DNA of 22,137 nt from a virus, in the IMG/VR virus record IMGVR_UViG_3300032084_001015, positions 1 to 22,137 of that record; one strand, given 5' to 3'. The translations under genes were made by a program, and so were the position numbers. Below are positions 2,266 to 16,041 of the stretch, in pieces (position 1 is the stretch's first letter; each line of letters starts with the position of its first letter). A model generated the notes under the pieces. That model was not told where the DNA came from. It saw only the letters and a program-made list of their open reading frames with translations, and did no database searches.

Positions 2266-3480
2266 ATGAAAAGAAGACAGTTTTTATCATCACTAGCTGG
2301 GCTTGCCGCTTTAACGCAAACCCTCAAGGCTAACGAGAAGGAATTAAAGAAAAAAGGCAAGTCGGCTATACTTCTCTGGATGGGCGGTGGCCCGTCAACG
2401 ATGGACATATGGGACTTAAAGCCAGACGCACCAACTGGTGGCCCATTCAAACCTATAAGTACAACCGGAGATGTAGAAATCTGTGAGCATATGCCGTTAA
2501 TGGCAAAGCAGATGCACAATATGGCTATTGTGCGAAGCATGAGTACCCGTGAAGCTGACCACATGAGGGGTCGTTACTACATGCACACAGGCTATGTACC
2601 TAATCCAAATATGGTTCACCCAAGTTACGGAGCTATTCTTTCTAAAGAACTAGAAAGAGAAGACCTTTTGATACCTCAGTTTGTGTCAGTTAATGGCCCA
2701 AGTGCTGGAGGTGGATTTTTAGGTGCTGAATATTCTCCGTTTGTGGTAAACAGCGATGGTAGAATTAGAAATCTAGACTTAGAAATAGATGATAGATTTC
2801 GTCAAAGAACACAAGCCCTACATTTAATGGAAAACAACTTCATAAAAAACAATAGAGGGTCTCTCGCTAAAGAACATCAGAAGATATTGCGAAAAACATT
2901 TGATGCTTTGACCAGTATTGAGATGGACGCAATGAAGGTGGATGTAGAGCCAGAGTCCGTTAAGGAGCGATACGGGGACAACAGCTTTGGCAAAGGGTGT
3001 CTAATGGCTAGGAGACTTGTTGAGGTCGGCGTTCCATTTATCGAGGTCGGGCTAAACGGCTGGGACAACCATCAGAATATTTTTCCAACATTAAAAGACA
3101 CAAAGCTACCCATGCTAGATCAAGGCATGAGTGCCCTAATAGAAGACTTAGAGCAGCGAGGACTACTTGATGACACGGCTATCATATGGATGGGAGAATT
3201 CAGTAGAACTCCACGTATCAACCAGAACGCTGGGCGAGACCACTGGGCAAGAAGTTGGAGTGTGGTTGTAGGTGGGGCTGGCATGAATGGTGGTATATCT
3301 ATAGGTTCAACAAACGAAGACGGAACAGAAGTAGAAACAGAAAGCCACTCTTCGGAAGATGTAATGGTGTCGATTTGTAACGCTCTTGGCATTTCGTTGG
3401 AGACCACCTATACAAGCAACAGTGGGCGACCTATGAAAATAGCTAACTCAGGAAAAATTATAAAAGAGTTGTTTGTATGA
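2266..3480 (+). CDS. DUF1501-family protein with Tat signal peptide
   Basis: 404 residues; ATG is preceded by AAGGA about 10 nt upstream. The N-terminus, K2-R3-R4-Q-F-L followed by a short hydrophobic stretch, is a twin-arginine export signal, so the protein should be folded in the cytoplasm and then exported. The mature part is typical of DUF1501, a clan member of the alkaline phosphatase/sulfatase-like fold. It includes LLWMGGGPSTMDIWDLKPD (about 36-54), a HMRGRYYMHTGY segment, and IWMGEFSRTPRINQN...GRDHW near residue 315, with Asp, His and Glu residues suited to metal binding. The family has no settled reaction. It is abundant in Planctomycetes, where members are usually somewhat longer (about 450 residues). 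Cargo of this kind is unexpected in a phage and looks host-derived. It sits alone between two non-coding gaps, consistent with an acquired cassette. Confidence 0.85.
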   Translation: MKRRQFLSSLAGLAALTQTLKANEKELKKKGKSAILLWMGGGPSTMDIWDLKPDAPTGGPFKPISTTGDVEICEHMPLMAKQMHNMAIVRSMSTREADHMRGRYYMHTGYVPNPNMVHPSYGAILSKELEREDLLIPQFVSVNGPSAGGGFLGAEYSPFVVNSDGRIRNLDLEIDDRFRQRTQALHLMENNFIKNNRGSLAKEHQKILRKTFDALTSIEMDAMKVDVEPESVKERYGDNSFGKGCLMARRLVEVGVPFIEVGLNGWDNHQNIFPTLKDTKLPMLDQGMSALIEDLEQRGLLDDTAIIWMGEFSRTPRINQNAGRDHWARSWSVVVGGAGMNGGISIGSTNEDGTEVETESHSSEDVMVSICNALGISLETTYTSNSGRPMKIANSGKIIKELFV

Positions 3481-3530
3481 TGAAAAGGGGTGTCAATTTA
3501 AATATAACATAAATATTTAAAATAAGTGTG

Positions 3531-3536
3531 TATAAT
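3531..3536 (+). promoter_or_regulatory. TATAAT -10 candidate before the trypsin-like gene
   Basis: A perfect TATAAT lies 39 nt upstream of the chosen ATG at 3570, in an 89-nt gap. The position 17 nt further up (CATAAA) has no -35 similarity, so this is weaker than the three promoters at 4262, 11128 and 18980. Confidence 0.3.
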
Positions 3537-3569
3537 CTTTTGGTGTGTTTTACAAAGAAAGGTTATATT

Positions 3570-4256
3570 ATGTTTAGGCTATTTTTTCTGTTTTTAGGTT
3601 TTGTTTTATTTCCTCAGTTTTGCCAAGCTCAAAGCTGGGATGTATCACCAGAAAAAGATTATCAAAAGGGAGTGGTTTTACTTCAAGGTGACGGACTCCA
3701 AGGCTCTGGTACAGTTGTAAAATTTATTGAAGATGCTGGTGAAAATTACATTGGTTTAATTCTTACTGCCAGTCATTGCGTTAAAGATAAAAGCACCTTG
3801 TTTAATGTATTTTTTTCAGGTGGAAAAAAATCCGAGGGAGGTATAGTTGCTTACAATTCTATGTACATATTTGAAAGCTATAATGATGTAGCATTAATTG
3901 AGGCTGTTATACCTGACGAAATACCAGTGGTGGAAATATCTAACGAGAAAGTAAAGTGTGGCGAGGAAGTGGAAATGTGTGGTTATGCAACGGGTTCGTT
4001 GCGTCACTGGAACGCTAAATACGCAGGCTCTTCAATTCCCCAAGATGGTCACGTTATTTTTTCTTGGGCTATACAGGGCGACTCAGGTGGGCCAATTCTT
4101 TACAAGGGCAAGATCATAGGCGTTATATGCTTTGGTACTGCTTTAGAAAGATTTAACGACAGGTATATAGTTGGGCCAATTCACGGAACCAATATAGATA
4201 GGGTTAGATTCTATATAGATAATTACAAGCGAAAGAAAATCACAAAAGAAGTATAA
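3570..4256 (+). CDS. Secreted trypsin-like serine protease (S1 fold)
   Basis: 228 residues. I choose ATG 3570 over an upstream in-frame codon at 3528 because AAAGG (3558-3562) is 7 nt away and the protein then begins with a clean Sec signal peptide. That peptide is MFR, a phenylalanine/leucine core, then a QAQS cleavage region near residue 21. The S1 triad is complete and correctly spaced: H69 in TASHC, D106 in NDVALI and S172 in GDSGGP. The mature domain of about 207 residues is compact for a trypsin/glutamyl endopeptidase-like enzyme and has no extra PDZ domain. It should cleave proteins outside the cytoplasm of the host. The charged tail (KRKKITKEV) carries no anchor. Together with a metzincin at 15187 that has a very similar leader, it suggests a planned attack on envelope or extracellular proteins. 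Confidence 0.88.
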   Translation: MFRLFFLFLGFVLFPQFCQAQSWDVSPEKDYQKGVVLLQGDGLQGSGTVVKFIEDAGENYIGLILTASHCVKDKSTLFNVFFSGGKKSEGGIVAYNSMYIFESYNDVALIEAVIPDEIPVVEISNEKVKCGEEVEMCGYATGSLRHWNAKYAGSSIPQDGHVIFSWAIQGDSGGPILYKGKIIGVICFGTALERFNDRYIVGPIHGTNIDRVRFYIDNYKRKKITKEV

Positions 4257-4327: not shown

Positions 4328-5377
4328 ATGATAAACTTTCAAACTCCTATCAATTTTTTAGGGTATGGAGTAGCTGGATATAATATTTTTAAAGAGATTA
4401 TAAAGATTCATCCGTCCGCTGCTTTATATCCTATTTCTAGACCAGAATTTACTGATAAATATATTGAAAAAGGTCTGAATAACCGAGACTGGCTCAAAGG
4501 CCATTGTCCATCTGTAAAGATTTGGCATCAAAACGATGTTCACACTCACATCGGAAAAGGTGAGCATATTGGCTTCCCTATCTTTGAATTAACAGAGTTT
4601 AGCGAAGAAGAAGAATTGAGCATGTCGCACTGTGATAGACTGTTTGTTTGTTCTCAATGGGCTAAAGATGTTCTAACTAAAAACAATATTAAAAAACCAG
4701 AAGATATTCATGTAGTACCCTTGGGTGTGGACACTGAGATTTTCAAGCCAGTACCTTCAAGAAATGACGATAAAACAATATTTTTTAATTGTGGCAAGTG
4801 GGAAGTTCGCAAAGGTCACGATGTTTTACTAGAATGTTTTAATGCAGCCTTTGAGCCACGGGACAATGTAGAACTGTGGATGATGTGTGACAATCCGTTT
4901 ATTGGACAAATGAATGATCAATGGAAAAATCTTTACAAAAACTCTAGATTGGGCAGCAAAATCAAGTTCATCCCAAGGCAAGAAACTCACGAAGATGTGT
5001 ATAATATCATGCGACGAGTTGATTGTGGTGTTTTCCCCGCGAGAGCAGAAGGTTGGAATCTTGAGTTATTAGAGATGATGGCTTGCGGTAAGCAAGTTAT
5101 TGCGACTAACTATTCCGCTCACACTGAGTTTTGCAACAAAAATAATTGTTATTTAGTTGAAGTCGAAGGACTTGAACAAGCCTATGATGGGGTGTTCTTT
5201 TCTGGAAACCACGGGGAATGGGCAAGTCTTAACGATTCCGCTAAAGATCAGCTTATCGAACACATGAGAATGGTTCATGGCATTAAGGAGCGATACAATC
5301 ACGCAGCAATAGAAACGGCAAATAAATTAACATGGGAAAATTCAGCAAAGGAGCTAATAAATGGACTTAAACTTTAA
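4328..5377 (+). CDS. Glycosyltransferase, GT-B fold, family 4-like
   Basis: 349 residues with AAAGGG upstream of the ATG. The N-terminal half starts with NFLGYGVAGYNIFKEI (residues 9-24), similar to the first strand and helix of GT-B enzymes. The C-terminal half has the family 4 core: VPLGVDTEIF (129-138), FNCGKWEVRKGHDVLL (153-168), and the E-x7-E nucleotide-sugar-binding motif at E241 and E249 within EGWNLELLEMMACG. It should transfer a sugar from a nucleotide-sugar donor in the cytoplasm. No membrane segment is present. The acceptor is unknown; phage glycosyltransferases commonly modify host surface glycans, phage DNA or virion proteins. Its 3' end overlaps the papain-like protease gene by 17 nt, so translation of the two is probably coupled. 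A promoter candidate sits just upstream. Confidence 0.85.
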   Translation: MINFQTPINFLGYGVAGYNIFKEIIKIHPSAALYPISRPEFTDKYIEKGLNNRDWLKGHCPSVKIWHQNDVHTHIGKGEHIGFPIFELTEFSEEEELSMSHCDRLFVCSQWAKDVLTKNNIKKPEDIHVVPLGVDTEIFKPVPSRNDDKTIFFNCGKWEVRKGHDVLLECFNAAFEPRDNVELWMMCDNPFIGQMNDQWKNLYKNSRLGSKIKFIPRQETHEDVYNIMRRVDCGVFPARAEGWNLELLEMMACGKQVIATNYSAHTEFCNKNNCYLVEVEGLEQAYDGVFFSGNHGEWASLNDSAKDQLIEHMRMVHGIKERYNHAAIETANKLTWENSAKELINGLKL

Positions 5378-6287
5378 GTCGCCTAGAAAGATTTTAAATC
5401 ATTACAGAGATGGTTTCGTTGGAAGTGTTTGTGACCATGAAGACACAGCTAAACTTTTAGGTGAGTTGCCAATGCCTGTTTTTGGTGCTGCCGCTCACGA
5501 TCTTTTTGGTGCTGGGGAAGGCAAGCTCTCATTGCCCTTTAAATCGCTTTTAAAGTTTGACCCCGCGTTTGGGCCAAGTGAAGCACAAACAACCGGAGAT
5601 TGCGTAGCTCACGCCACACGTAACGCTATAGACATCACACGGGCAGTTGAGATAGACATTGATGGTCAGAGAGAGGAATTTATTGCTCGCGGAGCCACTG
5701 AAGCGATTTACCAGTCTAGACCTTGGAGCGATCAAGGTATGACATGCTCTGGTGCTGCTAGATATGTGAGCGAGAACGGAGGTATTCTAATTCGCAAAGA
5801 TTATGGAATGGTAGACCTTTCTGTTTACAATTCAAAGTTAGGCAGTAAAAAAATGATACCTCGTCAGATTTACAGCGAAGAAGCTCAGAAGCATCAAGTA
5901 AAAACAGTTTCTAATATTAGGACTATTGAAGAGGCTAGAGACGCATTGGCTAATGGTTATGCCTTGGGTGTTTGCTCTGGTTATGGCTTTAGTTCTAGGC
6001 GAGATAAAAATGGAATCGCTGCTCGAAGCAAGGGGTGGAATCACGACATGGCTTGGATAGCCTGTGATGACACCAGAGAGCGACTTAACGAGACATTGTT
6101 TTTAATTCAAAATAGCTGGGGAATATGGAATTCTGGGCCAAAAGTTAATGGGCAACCAGAAGGAAGTTTCTGGGTTCGAGAAAAAGATGCTCGCGGAATG
6201 TTGTCTGAAGGTGGGGCTTGGGTATTCTCAAACGTAGAAGGGTTTCCCGCTAGAGAAATTGACTATACAATAGATGAGGTATTTTAA
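5361..6287 (+). CDS. Papain-like (C1 family) cysteine protease
   Basis: 308 residues. The start lies inside the previous gene, behind AAAGGAG (5347-5353). The four C1 active-site positions occur in order. Q76 and C81 lie in QTTGDCVAHA (the oxyanion glutamine and nucleophile of papain's QGSCGSCWAF). H228 lies in WNHDMAW, and N251 in QNSWGIWNSG followed by GSFWVRE, the papain NSWG...G.F pattern. There is no signal peptide and no long inhibitory propeptide; only about 70 residues precede the catalytic segment. The protein is probably cytoplasmic, or released by a holin. It is followed with a 1-nt overlap by a run of small, mostly membrane-anchored proteins. That position is where a phage endolysin often sits, so a lysis role is possible; virion assembly proteolysis or host-protein cleavage are alternatives. 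Confidence 0.8.
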   Translation: MDLNFKSPRKILNHYRDGFVGSVCDHEDTAKLLGELPMPVFGAAAHDLFGAGEGKLSLPFKSLLKFDPAFGPSEAQTTGDCVAHATRNAIDITRAVEIDIDGQREEFIARGATEAIYQSRPWSDQGMTCSGAARYVSENGGILIRKDYGMVDLSVYNSKLGSKKMIPRQIYSEEAQKHQVKTVSNIRTIEEARDALANGYALGVCSGYGFSSRRDKNGIAARSKGWNHDMAWIACDDTRERLNETLFLIQNSWGIWNSGPKVNGQPEGSFWVREKDARGMLSEGGAWVFSNVEGFPAREIDYTIDEVF

Positions 6288-6682
6288 TGGACACTTCGAA
6301 AAAATTAATGGTAGGGGCTGCTTTGATTGCCTTTTTGGTTTTTTGTCAAGTAAAACCACAATTATCAAAAAATGTCATGTCAAATGACGAAATCAGTGCT
6401 ATCATAGTACAAGTGAACGAAGCATTTGACGAAGCGGAGTTGCAGGTTTTAGGTGTTGATCCAGAACCTAATACGCCGAAGGGTATAGACCCAGACCCAG
6501 AAAAGTGTATTTGTGGTGGTACTGGCGAAATTGTTCAAGGTGATGGTCACATCACTCAATGCCCGTACCACGGAAGTAAAGATGAGTCAGTTGAGTCTGA
6601 AGTACAGTATTTTGAGCCTGAAGCTAAGATATATGTTTATCCTAGACGTAAAGGCTTTTTAGAAAGATTATTTTTTAATTAG
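6287..6682 (+). CDS. Small membrane-anchored protein with CxC...CxxH zinc-finger-like motif
   Basis: 131 residues; the ATG shares one base with the previous TAA, which implies coupled translation. Residues 6-20 are hydrophobic and likely a signal anchor. Residues 73-96 read KCICGGTGEIVQGDGHITQCPYHG: C74, C76, C92 and H95, with DnaJ-like CGGTG spacing, suggesting a zinc site. The rest is acidic. I recall similar CxCxGTGxxxxGDGHxxxCP modules in uncharacterised phage proteins but cannot name a family. Its place between the papain-like protease and a holin-like gene suggests it belongs to the same envelope-acting cluster. Confidence 0.6.
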   Translation: MDTSKKLMVGAALIAFLVFCQVKPQLSKNVMSNDEISAIIVQVNEAFDEAELQVLGVDPEPNTPKGIDPDPEKCICGGTGEIVQGDGHITQCPYHGSKDESVESEVQYFEPEAKIYVYPRRKGFLERLFFN

Positions 6683-6690
6683 GAGAAGTT

Positions 6691-6879
6691 ATGAGTAAAG
6701 TAAAATCACTACTTACCAGTCGTCGTTTTTGGGCAGCAGGTATTGGATTGGTAGCTGTTGTTGCGTCTGATCTATTTGGAGTGACACTAGATCAAGACCA
6801 GCTTATTGGTGTGGTTACAATCGTTGTTACTTGGATCATTGGTGACACGGTGCGTGAAACTAAACTAGAAGAAAAGTAA
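6691..6879 (+). CDS. Holin-like small membrane protein
   Basis: 62 residues with a strong TAGGAGAAG ribosome site. Topology: a short basic N-terminus (SKVKSLLTSRRF), a first hydrophobic helix at about 13-31, a polar turn containing LDQDQ, a second hydrophobic helix at about 38-51, and a charged tail (RETKLEEK). Two helices, tiny size, basic and acidic ends and a SRRFW start resemble small phage holins. Holins form membrane holes that time lysis. Sequence conservation in holins is poor, so this rests on size, topology and position. Confidence 0.5.
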   Translation: MSKVKSLLTSRRFWAAGIGLVAVVASDLFGVTLDQDQLIGVVTIVVTWIIGDTVRETKLEEK

Positions 6880-6890
6880 GGAGTTAACCT

Positions 6891-7220
6891 ATGGAATTTC
6901 TGTCAGGTTTAAGTTTGCCCCAGTGGGCTATTATCGGGATGGGCGTTTATCTACTTCTTTCTGGAACTATAAATTTTTCCCAGCTATTGGAATGGTTTAA
7001 AAAACAGTTTTCCAAAAGCAAAGATAAAGATAAAGAGAAAGATATGGTTACAACAGTCGAAGACGCTGAAGGACACAGCCTAGTTCAATTAGTAGCTAAG
7101 TGGGACGACTTAATGATTTCTTGCGATAAAGCGGGCCGTGTTGCTGCTTGTCAAGAACTAGAAAAGGTCTTCCCGTTGTTGGCTCCCACTAAAAAAGGAG
7201 GCACTCCAAATGAAGACTAA
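6891..7220 (+). CDS. Single-pass membrane protein with Lys/Asp-rich linker
   Basis: 109 residues, AAGGAG upstream. One hydrophobic helix spans about 11-25, followed by an amphipathic stretch and a strongly charged run (KSKDKDKEKD, about 43-52). The C-terminal 55 residues look like a small helical domain (LVQLVAKWDDLMISCDKAGRVAAC...LEKVFPLL). No family recognised. The gene overlaps the next by 11 nt and belongs to the 6287-7882 set of small membrane proteins. A role in lysis or membrane remodelling is only inferred from position. Confidence 0.5.
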   Translation: MEFLSGLSLPQWAIIGMGVYLLLSGTINFSQLLEWFKKQFSKSKDKDKEKDMVTTVEDAEGHSLVQLVAKWDDLMISCDKAGRVAACQELEKVFPLLAPTKKGGTPNED

Positions 7221-7662
7221 AGTTATCATTGGCTTGACGTTGTTATTTATAGGTTTATTCTGGGGTCAAATTCAGGAACGGATTCCTGATTTTACTATTC
7301 CTTCAAGGCCATCTTTAGATATTATGGAGCCTTCTGAAGAAATAAAAGAAAAAGTCTCAAGCATCTCGTCTGAAGTTGTCGATGATATGGATAGATTGAA
7401 TTTAGCTGTTTTCAATAATGTTTTTTCTGAAAGAGTACTAAGCTATTCTGATGCGAAGGCCCAACAGATAAATGATATTTACACTGATTCTGCTAAGATT
7501 TTTTTTGGTCAAAGATTAAAAGGTAAGTATAGTAATCTCGCTGACAACCTTACGGGGTTGATGTCTGAGACATTAGGAAGCGAAGATCACGTTGTTACAC
7601 CTGCGGAGTTGCAGGGTTTAAGTTCGAATTTCCAAGGTTTATCTTGGTCTTTTTCAAAGTGA
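7210..7662 (+). CDS. Signal-anchored protein of unknown function
   Basis: 150 residues with the strongest ribosome site in the window, an AAAAAAGGAGG stretch, 8 nt before ATG. Residues 2-18 (KTKVIIGLTLLFIGLFW) form an uncleaved signal anchor, so the remaining 130 residues should lie outside the cytoplasm. That part is mostly helical with a proline-rich neck (RIPDFTIPSRPSLDI) just after the membrane. The N-terminal anchor, external helical domain and place after a holin-like gene would fit an inner-membrane spanin. There is no lipoprotein partner and no clear coiled coil, so I do not assign that role. Confidence 0.5.
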   Translation: MKTKVIIGLTLLFIGLFWGQIQERIPDFTIPSRPSLDIMEPSEEIKEKVSSISSEVVDDMDRLNLAVFNNVFSERVLSYSDAKAQQINDIYTDSAKIFFGQRLKGKYSNLADNLTGLMSETLGSEDHVVTPAELQGLSSNFQGLSWSFSK

Positions 7663-7669
7663 GGTGAAT

Positions 7670-7882
7670 ATGGTTGAAATTTTAAAAAAATTAATTGAAG
7701 CTAGGTTGGGAGGCATGGCGTTTAAACTACAGAATGTTTTAAATTCTCCCGAAGAAAACTCAGTGTCTAAACTTGATGATTTGCTGACTGACTACGTTGT
7801 TGACGTGCAAAAGTTAAAGATGATAGATGAAATCATTAACAGTTCAAATCAAGAACCTGAAGTCGATCAAGAGCCACAGTAA
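7670..7882 (+). CDS. Small acidic orphan protein
   Basis: 70 residues from ATG 7670; GAGGTGA (7661-7667) overlaps the previous stop and serves as ribosome site. An alternative GTG two codons upstream (7664) lies inside that site and is less likely. It is helical, with a Glu/Asp/Gln-rich tail (EPEVDQEPQ) and no membrane segment. Not recognised. It closes the small-gene cluster. Confidence 0.45.
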   Translation: MVEILKKLIEARLGGMAFKLQNVLNSPEENSVSKLDDLLTDYVVDVQKLKMIDEIINSSNQEPEVDQEPQ

Positions 7883-15186: not shown

Positions 15187-16041
15187 GTGTTTAGATTTTT
15201 ACTGTTTTTCGTTTTTTGTTCACTGTTCACTTGCAATTTACATGCTCAAAAGATAAAATACTGGTTGGAACCCAACGGTCATATGGCTGAAATATCTTCT
15301 GAAGAGACTCACCGCAGGATCGACGAGGCTTTAGCAGAGATAGAGCAGATATGTGACATAGAGTTTATAAGAGTTTATGAATTTCGTAAAGCAAGGGTTA
15401 GATACTTTTTTAGACCTCAAGACCAAATACCTTACGGGGCTTTGGGTTTAGCTTACAAAAGTAAACGATACATCTTGATGAACAGCACTAGAAAGATTGG
15501 CCTTACACAAGAAATTGGAGAAAGAAGAGTTCAAACAGTAGCACAACATGAAATGCTTCACATGCTTAACTGGAAACATCGAACAGATGATGTGTTGGGT
15601 CAAGACGAATTATCTATCATGGACCCCTATCGTTTAGCGAAGTATTTCAACAGACTTGATGTTTATTATTTACAAAGAAAGTTTGGTAAGTACAAAGACA
15701 AAGTAAACAATGAGACTGGTGCTAAGGGCAGAAAGAACAGGGATGGTATTCCAGACAAGACTTTCGTTCCTGCAACACTAGCTAAATGGGGCAGGCAGCA
15801 CAGAGAAGATGTTGTTGAAGGTAAAATCCTTCACGAAGAAAGAGATAGATTAATAGCAGAAAGAGACGCTTTGACTGACCCTGTTGCAAGGGGGCAAAAG
15901 CAGGCAGAAGTTTTGGAGAACCTCGACAGAATTCTAGCACATAATATTAAGCAAGTTGCCTCTGGTGCTAGGTGGCACGCGATTAATTTTTACTGGGCAG
16001 GAACTTACGGTTACCGTTTTAATTATTATCAACCTGAGTAA
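15187..16041 (+). CDS. Secreted metzincin-type zinc metalloprotease
   Basis: 284 residues starting with GTG, supported by GAGG (15177-15180) 6 nt upstream. Residues 1-20 are a Sec signal peptide (MFRFLLFFVF..., cleavage near HAQK). The zinc motif is H121-E122-x2-H125-x5-H131 (QHEMLHMLNWKH), with Asn where metzincins usually have Gly. The Met-turn SIMDP follows at M145, 14 residues after the last ligand. The N-terminal strand region (KIKYWLEPNGHM, ETHRRIDEALAEIEQI) resembles matrixins, which begin with a similar strand-helix pair, and no propeptide cysteine switch is seen. About 120 further residues form a charged helical tail of unknown role. It should degrade proteins outside the cytoplasm. 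It follows nrdB by 61 nt. Confidence 0.82.
   Translation: MFRFLLFFVFCSLFTCNLHAQKIKYWLEPNGHMAEISSEETHRRIDEALAEIEQICDIEFIRVYEFRKARVRYFFRPQDQIPYGALGLAYKSKRYILMNSTRKIGLTQEIGERRVQTVAQHEMLHMLNWKHRTDDVLGQDELSIMDPYRLAKYFNRLDVYYLQRKFGKYKDKVNNETGAKGRKNRDGIPDKTFVPATLAKWGRQHREDVVEGKILHEERDRLIAERDALTDPVARGQKQAEVLENLDRILAHNIKQVASGARWHAINFYWAGTYGYRFNYYQPE

What the first reader, a model, noticed from the sequence alone, without database searches (positions are those of the whole stretch)
5361..7882. Candidate lysis or envelope-breaching module built on a papain-like protease instead of a peptidoglycan hydrolase
A C1-type protease with a complete Gln-Cys-His-Asn set overlaps directly into small genes, including a two-helix holin-like protein and three other membrane-anchored proteins. 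This is the gene order of a phage lysis cassette with the endolysin replaced by a protease. No lysozyme, amidase, NlpC/P60 or CHAP enzyme is visible elsewhere in the window. A protease endolysin would suit a host whose wall is largely protein. I know of no described example, so this is a hypothesis.
Basis: inference. Interest (0 to 1): 0.7.

Follow-up and report, generated by a model that had tools for sequence, protein, structure and literature searches.

The report
Phage holin plus papain-like protease cassette
A large family of environmental phages, probably infecting planctomycete bacteria, carries a protease locked beside a hole-forming-type membrane protein where a wall-cutting enzyme would normally sit, so these phages may escape their hosts by digesting protein rather than the usual sugar-peptide wall.

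Summary
ORF 5361-6287 is a papain-fold cysteine protease with an intact Gln76-Cys81-His228-Asn251 set, coupled to four small genes, three or four with membrane segments, one a two-helix protein matching PHROG holins. An IMG/VR scan found 283 relatives (80 kept). One short two-helix protein accompanies the protease in 61 of 61 loci with enough flank: 42 downstream, 19 directly upstream. The two kinds show no detectable homology; the protease tree needs two exchanges. Two relatives are complete genomes (167 and 173 kb). Neither matched any of seven muralytic families searched, and a ClpP-type protease already sits with the head genes. Among 72,556 plasmid records the only relative lies on pPLIM01 of Planctopirus limnophila, a whole 37-kb phage. 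There it has a membrane segment, follows a two-helix protein, overlaps a further short gene with a membrane segment, and lies just before HNH and terminase, as lambda's lysis genes do. In 18 of 80 loci the next gene carries a thioredoxin domain, which would suit disulfide-bonded protein walls described for planctomycetes. Best reading: a holin-plus-protease lysis cassette (about 0.55). Nothing was tested at the bench. The window-type gene lies among replication genes, profile searches can miss remote enzymes, and P. limnophila sacculi are lysozyme-sensitive.

The parts
5361..6287 (+). C1-like (papain-fold) cysteine protease, 308 aa, proposed lysis enzyme; catalytic Gln76, Cys81, His228, Asn251; no hydrophobic membrane segment
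   Evidence: ORF; residues invariant; papain/cathepsin fold; no hydrophobic segment
6287..6682 (+). 131-aa protein with N-terminal membrane segment and a Cys motif C-x-C-G-G-T-G...GDGH...CP, probably facing outwards (inferred); in 18 of 80 relatives fused to a thioredoxin domain, 5 of 80 with a lipobox-like sequence
   Evidence: (Thioredoxin_2 in the G013 homologue)
6691..6879 (+). 62-aa two-helix holin-like protein (called holD here)
   Evidence: PHROG holins; two segments; linked to the protease
6891..7220 (+). 109-aa protein with a probable N-terminal membrane segment, conserved partner of unknown function
   Evidence: segment below cut-off in the window protein, clear in the G013 homologue
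7210..7662 (+). 150-aa protein, N-terminal membrane segment plus a confidently predicted helical domain (side of the membrane not tested); conserved partner
   Evidence: pLDDT 92.8; no convincing structural relative
7664..7882 (+). 72-aa conserved neighbour without a membrane segment; membership in the module uncertain

Best explanation
The cluster is an envelope-breaching (lysis) cassette in which a papain-type protease takes the place of the usual peptidoglycan-cutting endolysin. Proposed course: the protease is made and folds in the cytoplasm; the two-helix protein accumulates in the inner membrane and opens it; the protease reaches the periplasm and cuts peptide bonds of the wall, most likely of wall protein. 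The neighbouring anchored protein, with a Cys-rich and in some relatives a thioredoxin domain, keeps the active-site thiol reduced and/or opens disulfide bonds in the wall. The other anchored proteins assist membrane disruption, possibly in a spanin-like role. In the 37-kb phage of Planctopirus limnophila the protease carries its own N-terminal membrane segment, as SAR endolysins do. Shown: gene content, conserved active site, fold (by prediction), pairing with one two-helix protein, and no recognised muralytic enzyme in complete relatives. Inferred: export, substrate, timing and lysis itself. Of the 0.55 given here, about 0.37 is for a wall protein as substrate and 0.18 for peptide bonds of peptidoglycan (the first rival, counted inside the 0.55).
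For: Active site intact in 96 of 96 homologue rows. Fold: best Foldseek PDB hits are papain-family proteases (actinidin, E 2.3e-5); VIA-align gives xylellain Z 17.7 (rmsd 3.9, 236 residues) and Cwp84, a C. difficile S-layer-associated protease, Z 15.3. Of 61 loci with at least 1.0 kb upstream and 1.8 kb downstream, 42 have only the downstream two-helix protein, 19 only an unrelated upstream one, none both, none neither (repeated with stricter profiles and positions). The two kinds show no homology (hhalign probability 0.3%); two exchanges on a protease tree of 61 sequences. Searching by the two-helix protein, 54 of 60 loci examined hold the protease, 0 lack it with enough flank, 6 were too short (many are contigs already seen). 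In G014 (127-bp exact end repeat) and G013 (about 100-bp end overlap), none of CHAP, NLPC_P60, M23, SLT, Amidase_2, Phage_lysozyme, M15_4, and no muralytic family in Pfam scans of 121 G013 and 47 G014 proteins. pPLIM01: homologue with N-terminal membrane segment, after a gene with two hydrophobic helices and overlapping a further short gene with a membrane segment, just before HNH and terminase. Thioredoxin fusion in 18 of 80 next-door genes, 17 of 21 in type II.
Against: No experiment. The protease lies within a replication and nucleotide-metabolism block on the strand opposite to the structural genes (G013), not in a late lysis module. A Pfam Peptidase_C1 search found none of the proteases in 7 records that contain them, so remote muralytic enzymes could have been missed too. 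Planctomycetes do make peptidoglycan: isolated sacculi of P. limnophila itself (then P. limnophilus) and G. obscuriglobus fall apart with lysozyme (PMC4432640, passages). Cys24, Cys129 and Cys205 are not kept in the P. limnophila homologue, so a shared redox mechanism is not certain; thioredoxin is fused in only 1 of 59 genes outside type II. The holin swap may be as few as two events, so 61 of 61 are not independent. The host is inferred; the three hits in cellular assemblies sit in a 'SAR202' MAG (1) and a 'Lokiarchaeota' MAG (2).
Confidence: 0.55

Rival explanations
1. Same cassette, ordinary substrate: the protease is an endolysin in disguise, a papain-fold endopeptidase that cuts the peptide cross-bridges of planctomycete peptidoglycan, as CHAP, NlpC/P60 and C39-like domains do. 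(This share is counted inside the 0.55 of the best explanation.)
For: Papain-fold domains are known in endolysins; mycobacteriophage LysA N5 domains are assigned to the papain family (PMC3314691, passages read). P. limnophila and G. obscuriglobus sacculi are lysozyme-sensitive (PMC4432640, passages). A BFVD structural match is an uncultured phage protein named 'Peptidoglycan binding-like' (E 2.3e-3).
Against: The fold matches classical protein-cutting cathepsins and papains, and no CHAP or NlpC structure is among the 50 rows shown in either PDB comparison. No peptidoglycan-binding domain is recognised. Peptidoglycan genes are missing from most Planctomycetales (PMC8567305, passages) and several are dispensable in P. 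limnophila (PMC10632474, passages).
Confidence: 0.18
2. The module remodels the host envelope during infection rather than lysing it: for example superinfection exclusion, receptor destruction or export of phage proteins, with the two-helix protein as a channel or anchor.
For: The cassette sits among replication genes next to a glycosyltransferase, and the window carries other apparently exported proteases. Holin-mediated non-lytic export is described (PMC9527704, search listing only).
Against: The two complete genomes then have no recognised lysis enzyme at all. In pPLIM01 the cassette lies directly before HNH and terminase.
Confidence: 0.2
3. Intracellular early protease that degrades a host or defence protein; the membrane genes next door are unrelated passengers of the same operon.
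For: No hydrophobic N-terminal segment in the window protein; position in the replication block.
Against: One two-helix protein in 61 of 61 loci and the membrane partners in 58 of 59 loci with longer flanks (the exception, G012, ends in a large inserted gene); membrane segment on the P. limnophila homologue.
Confidence: 0.08
4. Head-maturation or virion-borne protease.
For: Phages need maturation proteases; genes that look tail-fibre-like by eye adjoin the protease in G010 and G012 (the G010 one, cut at 330 residues, has no PHROG match).
Against: A ClpP-type protease lies with terminase and portal in G013 and in pPLIM01; the cysteine protease is about 45 kb from the packaging genes in G013.
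Confidence: 0.02

Closest known systems
Holin-endolysin-spanin cassettes of tailed phages (lambda S-R-Rz/Rz1)
   Same: Small two-helix membrane protein coupled to a soluble enzyme without signal peptide; short overlapping genes with anchored partners; in pPLIM01 placed just before HNH and terminase (lambda features recalled)
   Different: The enzyme is a papain-fold protease; in the window family the cluster sits among replication genes
Pseudomurein endoisopeptidases PeiW/PeiP of methanogen phages (C71)
   Same: Peptidase used as endolysin for an archaeal wall (PMC4592898, start of abstract only; cysteine-peptidase nature recalled)
   Different: Different peptidase family (recalled), isopeptide substrate in pseudomurein; holins not identified there (PMC4456609, passages)
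Mycobacteriophage LysA N5 (C39/papain-family) domains
   Same: Papain-type fold in a phage endolysin (PMC3314691, passages)
   Different: Joined to a second, putative cell-wall-binding domain and directed at peptidoglycan; here a single-domain C1-like protein
Cwp84 and xylellain (bacterial C1A proteases)
   Same: Among the closest solved folds by VIA-align; Cwp84 is titled a surface-layer-associated protein
   Different: Bacterial proteins, not phage; under 20% identity
Baculovirus V-CATH
   Same: Viral cathepsin that promotes terminal host liquefaction and virus dissemination (PMC9965964, start of abstract seen)
   Different: Acts on insect hosts together with a chitinase; unrelated virus

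Membership tests
Papain-like C1 peptidases | Gln, Cys, His, Asn active-site set in order | tested here: met
   Q76, C81, H228, N251 in 96 of 96 rows; Q, C, H kept in the pPLIM01 homologue, Asn placement depends on the alignment. Four residues lie between Gln and Cys, against five in papain (recalled)
Papain-like C1 peptidases | papain fold | tested here: met
   model confidence only moderate (pLDDT 67.8, pTM 0.75)
Papain-like C1 peptidases | match to Pfam PF00112 | tested here: not met
   0 families for the window protein; 0 of 7 records at E 10. Hence 'C1-like', not filed as a PF00112 member
Papain-like C1 peptidases | peptidase activity | not testable with these tools
   needs purified protein and C81A control
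Holin-endolysin lysis cassette | small two-helix holin next to the enzyme | tested here: met
   one per locus in 61 of 61; PHROG holin 9987 (3 of 17 members at 1e-3); the upstream type matches no named family. Hole formation itself untested
Holin-endolysin lysis cassette | enzyme cuts the wall | not testable with these tools
   no substrate test possible
Holin-endolysin lysis cassette | no other endolysin in the genome | tested here: inconclusive
   none found in two complete genomes, but not every protein was scanned and one search shows that profiles can miss remote members
Holin-endolysin lysis cassette | late expression | tested here: inconclusive
   only gene position known: replication block in G013; before HNH and terminase in pPLIM01
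CHAP / NlpC-P60 endolysins | profile match of the window protein | tested here: not met
   0 Pfam families; 0 of 21 records
SAR endolysins | N-terminal signal anchor | tested here: not met
   no segment in the window protein; a segment is present in the pPLIM01 homologue (from residue 9)
Prohead maturation proteases | located with portal and capsid genes | tested here: not met
   that place is held by a ClpP-type protease

The most novel reading that the evidence does not exclude
A proteolytic lysis system for a bacterium with a largely protein wall: holin, papain-type protease and an exported thioredoxin act together, the thioredoxin reducing disulfide cross-links of Cys-rich wall proteins (such as the planctomycete YTV proteins) and the protease digesting them. 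It would realise the 'holin plus protease' exit proposed, but not found, for S-layer archaea.
Probability: 0.27. Interest if true: 0.9.

Novelty: new variant of a known kind. Interest (0 to 1): 0.72.

Why it matters
Phage lysis of bacteria is understood almost entirely as attack on peptidoglycan or its synthesis. A family of large phages that pairs a holin with a protein-cutting enzyme would be the first such lysis system that my searches met. It would also be a genetic witness in the long dispute over what holds planctomycete cells together. The P. limnophila phage pPLIM01 makes the question testable now, in a host with published genetic tools (PMC4910669 and PMC11958385, search listing only).

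Tried and rejected
Head-maturation protease: rejected because a ClpP-type protease occupies that place. Close relatives in sequenced phages: none for the protease, the two-helix proteins or the pPLIM01 protease. Sequence search of the PDB gave nothing useful, by single protein (best E 0.38) or profile (0 hits). The planctomycete export motif as a general host marker failed: a strict pattern found 1 of 2,995 phage ORFs against 1.55 in shuffles; only one protein (G014 15084) resembles the published consensus, with 3 mismatches in 10 fixed positions, read by eye. DUF1501 as host marker is only moderate: the best plasmid hit is a planctomycete for the window protein and two G013 paralogues (29-35% identity), but other phyla carry it. 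The 150-aa partner gave a confident model without a convincing structural relative (best Z 6.6; BFVD best E 0.025). A strict-pattern IMG/VR search with the pPLIM01 protease found no relative. The 'W010' labels are partly false because that profile drifted: in L061 and L079 the extra one is a thioredoxin ORF, and in L122 it marks an ORF that joins both domains; the counts were repeated with a clean profile and stand. The pPLIM01 lipobox lies inside an annotated 370-aa ORF, and I saw no ribosome-binding site at the internal Met, so a separate lipoprotein there is not shown. The phages binned as SAR202 and Lokiarchaeota are taken as mis-binned, not proved. A Peptidase_M19 dipeptidase occurs in 3 of 10 large records and was not taken as an endolysin.

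Coverage of the endolysin test. G013: 121 of 207 called ORFs scanned with Pfam. Left out: replication, RNR and glycan proteins recognised by eye, 11 further ORFs of 90 aa or more chosen by eye (one search list), most ORFs under 90 aa, and four genes crossing piece borders (a G010 homologue of one was scanned). G014: only ORFs of 80 aa or more without a G013 relative (47), less up to 22 left out by eye and 2 crossing borders. pPLIM01: only Amidase_2, Phage_lysozyme and M15_4 and the listed annotation, which PLSDB calls incomplete. In one search one first-look candidate for NLPC_P60 in G013 did not score at E 1.

Full report
What is there. The window is a 22,137-base fragment of a virus record. 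ORF 5361-6287 encodes 308 aa. It matches no Pfam family and no solved structure by sequence at a useful E-value. A model built from 28 homologues (pLDDT 67.8, pTM 0.75) matches papain-family proteases: Foldseek best E 2.3e-5, with 46 chains at or below 0.001; VIA-align best xylellain, Z 17.7, rmsd 3.9 over 236 residues, and Cwp84 at Z 15.3. The nearest predicted viral structures include phage proteins named Peptidase_C1 or C1A. Gln76, Cys81, His228 and Asn251 are identical in 96 of 96 homologue rows (up to 13 rows are second copies). The gene overlaps its neighbours or is separated from them by a few bases.

Comparative anatomy. One IMG/VR scan with the single protein gave 16 relatives; a scan with an alignment found 283, of which the best 80 were kept. 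Gene orders were tabulated for 87 loci. Type I, as in the window: glycosyltransferase, protease, Cys-motif protein, two-helix protein holD, then two anchored proteins. Type II: sigma factor, a 204-222-aa protein, a TM/coiled-coil protein of 191-199 aa (PAS-like by eye), a different two-helix protein holU, protease, Cys-motif protein (often with thioredoxin), a further one-segment protein, two anchored proteins, NrdA. L122 and L123 show a third, rearranged order with holD. In 61 loci with at least 1.0 kb upstream and 1.8 kb downstream, 42 have only holD, 19 only holU, none both, none neither. A repeat with stricter profiles gave the same numbers and places: holD begins 375-1,122 bases after the protease stop, holU 215-237 bases before the protease start. 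The Cys-motif protein and the two anchored proteins are present in 58 of 59 loci with longer flanks; the exception, G012, holds a large other gene there and then ends. holD matches PHROG holin families (E 3.3e-5 for the window protein; 3 of 17 members at 1e-3). holU matches no named family and shows no homology to holD. On a protease tree of 61 distinct sequences (not the same 61 as above) the holD/holU label needs 2 changes, with a 5-95% bootstrap range of 2-2. A search seeded with holD returned 80 of 210 relatives. Of the 60 loci newly fetched, 54 hold the protease, none lacks it with at least 1.7 kb upstream, and 6 are too short. Many are contigs already seen, so this is only partly independent. 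Stable pairing of one enzyme with one of two unrelated two-helix proteins is what a holin-endolysin pair would show.

Is there another lysis enzyme? G014 has an exact 127-base end repeat and G013 an overlap of about 100 bases, so both are taken as complete. Six-frame searches found no CHAP or NLPC_P60 in 21 records, no M23 or SLT in 15, no Amidase_2 or Phage_lysozyme in 13 and again in 6, and no M15_4 in 12 and again in 6. Pfam scans of 39, 40, 55 and 34 proteins (121 of the 207 called ORFs of G013, 47 of G014) found no muralytic family; the only cell-wall-suspect hit is an M19 dipeptidase present in 3 of 10 large records. The main caveat: the Peptidase_C1 profile found none of the proteases in 7 records that contain them, so absence by profile is not proof.

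Host and a cultured relative. DUF1501 proteins are carried by these phages (several in G013). For the window one and two of G013 the best plasmid match is a planctomycete, at 29-35% identity. One G014 protein starts with a sequence close to the planctomycete export consensus RRLxxExLExRxLLA quoted in PMC8567305; the motif is not enriched overall. Strongest: among 72,556 plasmid records the window protease has one match, PLIM_RS21800 on pPLIM01 of Planctopirus limnophila (27.7% identity over residues 76-308, E 1e-8). pPLIM01 is annotated with terminase, portal, ClpP-type prohead protease, capsid, tail tube, tape measure, integrase and Gam; none of the 54 listed features is named a lysis enzyme, though that table is incomplete. 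The homologue has a membrane segment from residue 9 and keeps Gln, Cys and His. The gene before it has two hydrophobic helices and, further on, a lipobox-like stretch inside the same annotated ORF; the gene after overlaps by four bases and has an N-terminal hydrophobic segment. HNH and terminase follow directly. This is the position of lambda's lysis genes (recalled). A homologue with a membrane segment argues for action outside the cytoplasm.

Mechanism. Planctomycete walls were long described as protein, with disulfide bonds (PMC2754498, PMC8567305, passages read). Cys-rich YTV proteins occur in Planctomycetales wall preparations, and peptidoglycan genes are absent from most Planctomycetales (PMC8567305). 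In P. limnophila several peptidoglycan genes are dispensable and a YTV protein is in the essential set (PMC10632474, passages). Against this, sacculi of P. limnophila and G. obscuriglobus are disintegrated by lysozyme (PMC4432640, passages). A holin that releases a protease into such an envelope would be a sensible lysis device. The thioredoxin domain fused to the next gene in 18 of 80 loci (17 of 21 in type II, 1 of 59 elsewhere; a separate thioredoxin ORF in L061 and L079) would supply reducing power. This last step is the boldest and least tested.

Against. In G013 the cassette lies in the replication block, opposite in strand to the structural genes. Cys24, Cys129 and Cys205 are not conserved in pPLIM01. 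The holin exchange may be only two events. No activity, location or timing is known. Hits in SAR202 and Lokiarchaeota assemblies leave some doubt about the host range.

Literature. PMC4456609 (passages) proposes holins combined with proteolytic enzymes for archaeal virus exit and says that S-layer-degrading enzymes are unknown. A 2025 survey of viral lytic proteins (PMC12596118, term search of the main text) contains neither 'papain' nor 'planctomycet'. Searches for papain-type phage lysis and planctomycete phages showed no described case among the rows listed, which were 15 of 8,262, 15 of 473, 12 of 41, 12 of 17 and 1 of 1 papers; only open-licence papers are held. A chronic, non-lytic planctomycete phage is described in PMC10945688 (passages).

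Verdict. Observation confirmed. The lysis reading is the best explanation at about 0.55, a new variant of the holin-endolysin kind with precedents in other peptidase endolysins; the protein-wall plus thioredoxin version is kept at 0.27.

Noticed in passing
window 2266-3480: DUF1501 protein with a twin-arginine-like N-terminus; G013 carries several, one of them near its PAP2 and DUF5824-like genes as in the window.
   Followed up: partly
window 3528-4256 and 15187-16041: Two further apparently exported proteases: a trypsin-like one (Pfam Trypsin_2 4e-8) and one with a HExxH-type motif (Matrixin only at E 0.063).
   Followed up: partly
G006 21366 (L019): ORF that looks like a MotA/TolQ/ExbB-type proton-channel subunit in a phage contig, with anchored ORFs following; judged by eye only.
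   Followed up: no
G014 (L133-L141), complete 172,984-bp record: Phage genome with 24 tRNA-like genes in the 4 of its 9 pieces that were scanned, and an RTX-repeat protein starting with a planctomycete-type export motif.
   Followed up: partly
L220 (pPLIM01): The 37-kb Planctopirus limnophila 'plasmid' looks like an entire phage genome (a phage-plasmid) in a genetically tractable planctomycete.
   Followed up: yes
L121, L122, L123: Phage contigs of this family binned in SAR202 and Lokiarchaeota assemblies, probably mis-binned; L122/L123 have a rearranged cassette directly after a ribonucleotide reductase gene, with two partner domains joined in one ORF in L122.
   Followed up: partly
G008, G010, G013, G014, G017 and other type II loci: TM plus coiled-coil protein with a PAS-like C-terminus (by eye) directly before the upstream two-helix protein; possibly a regulator of lysis timing.
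   Followed up: no
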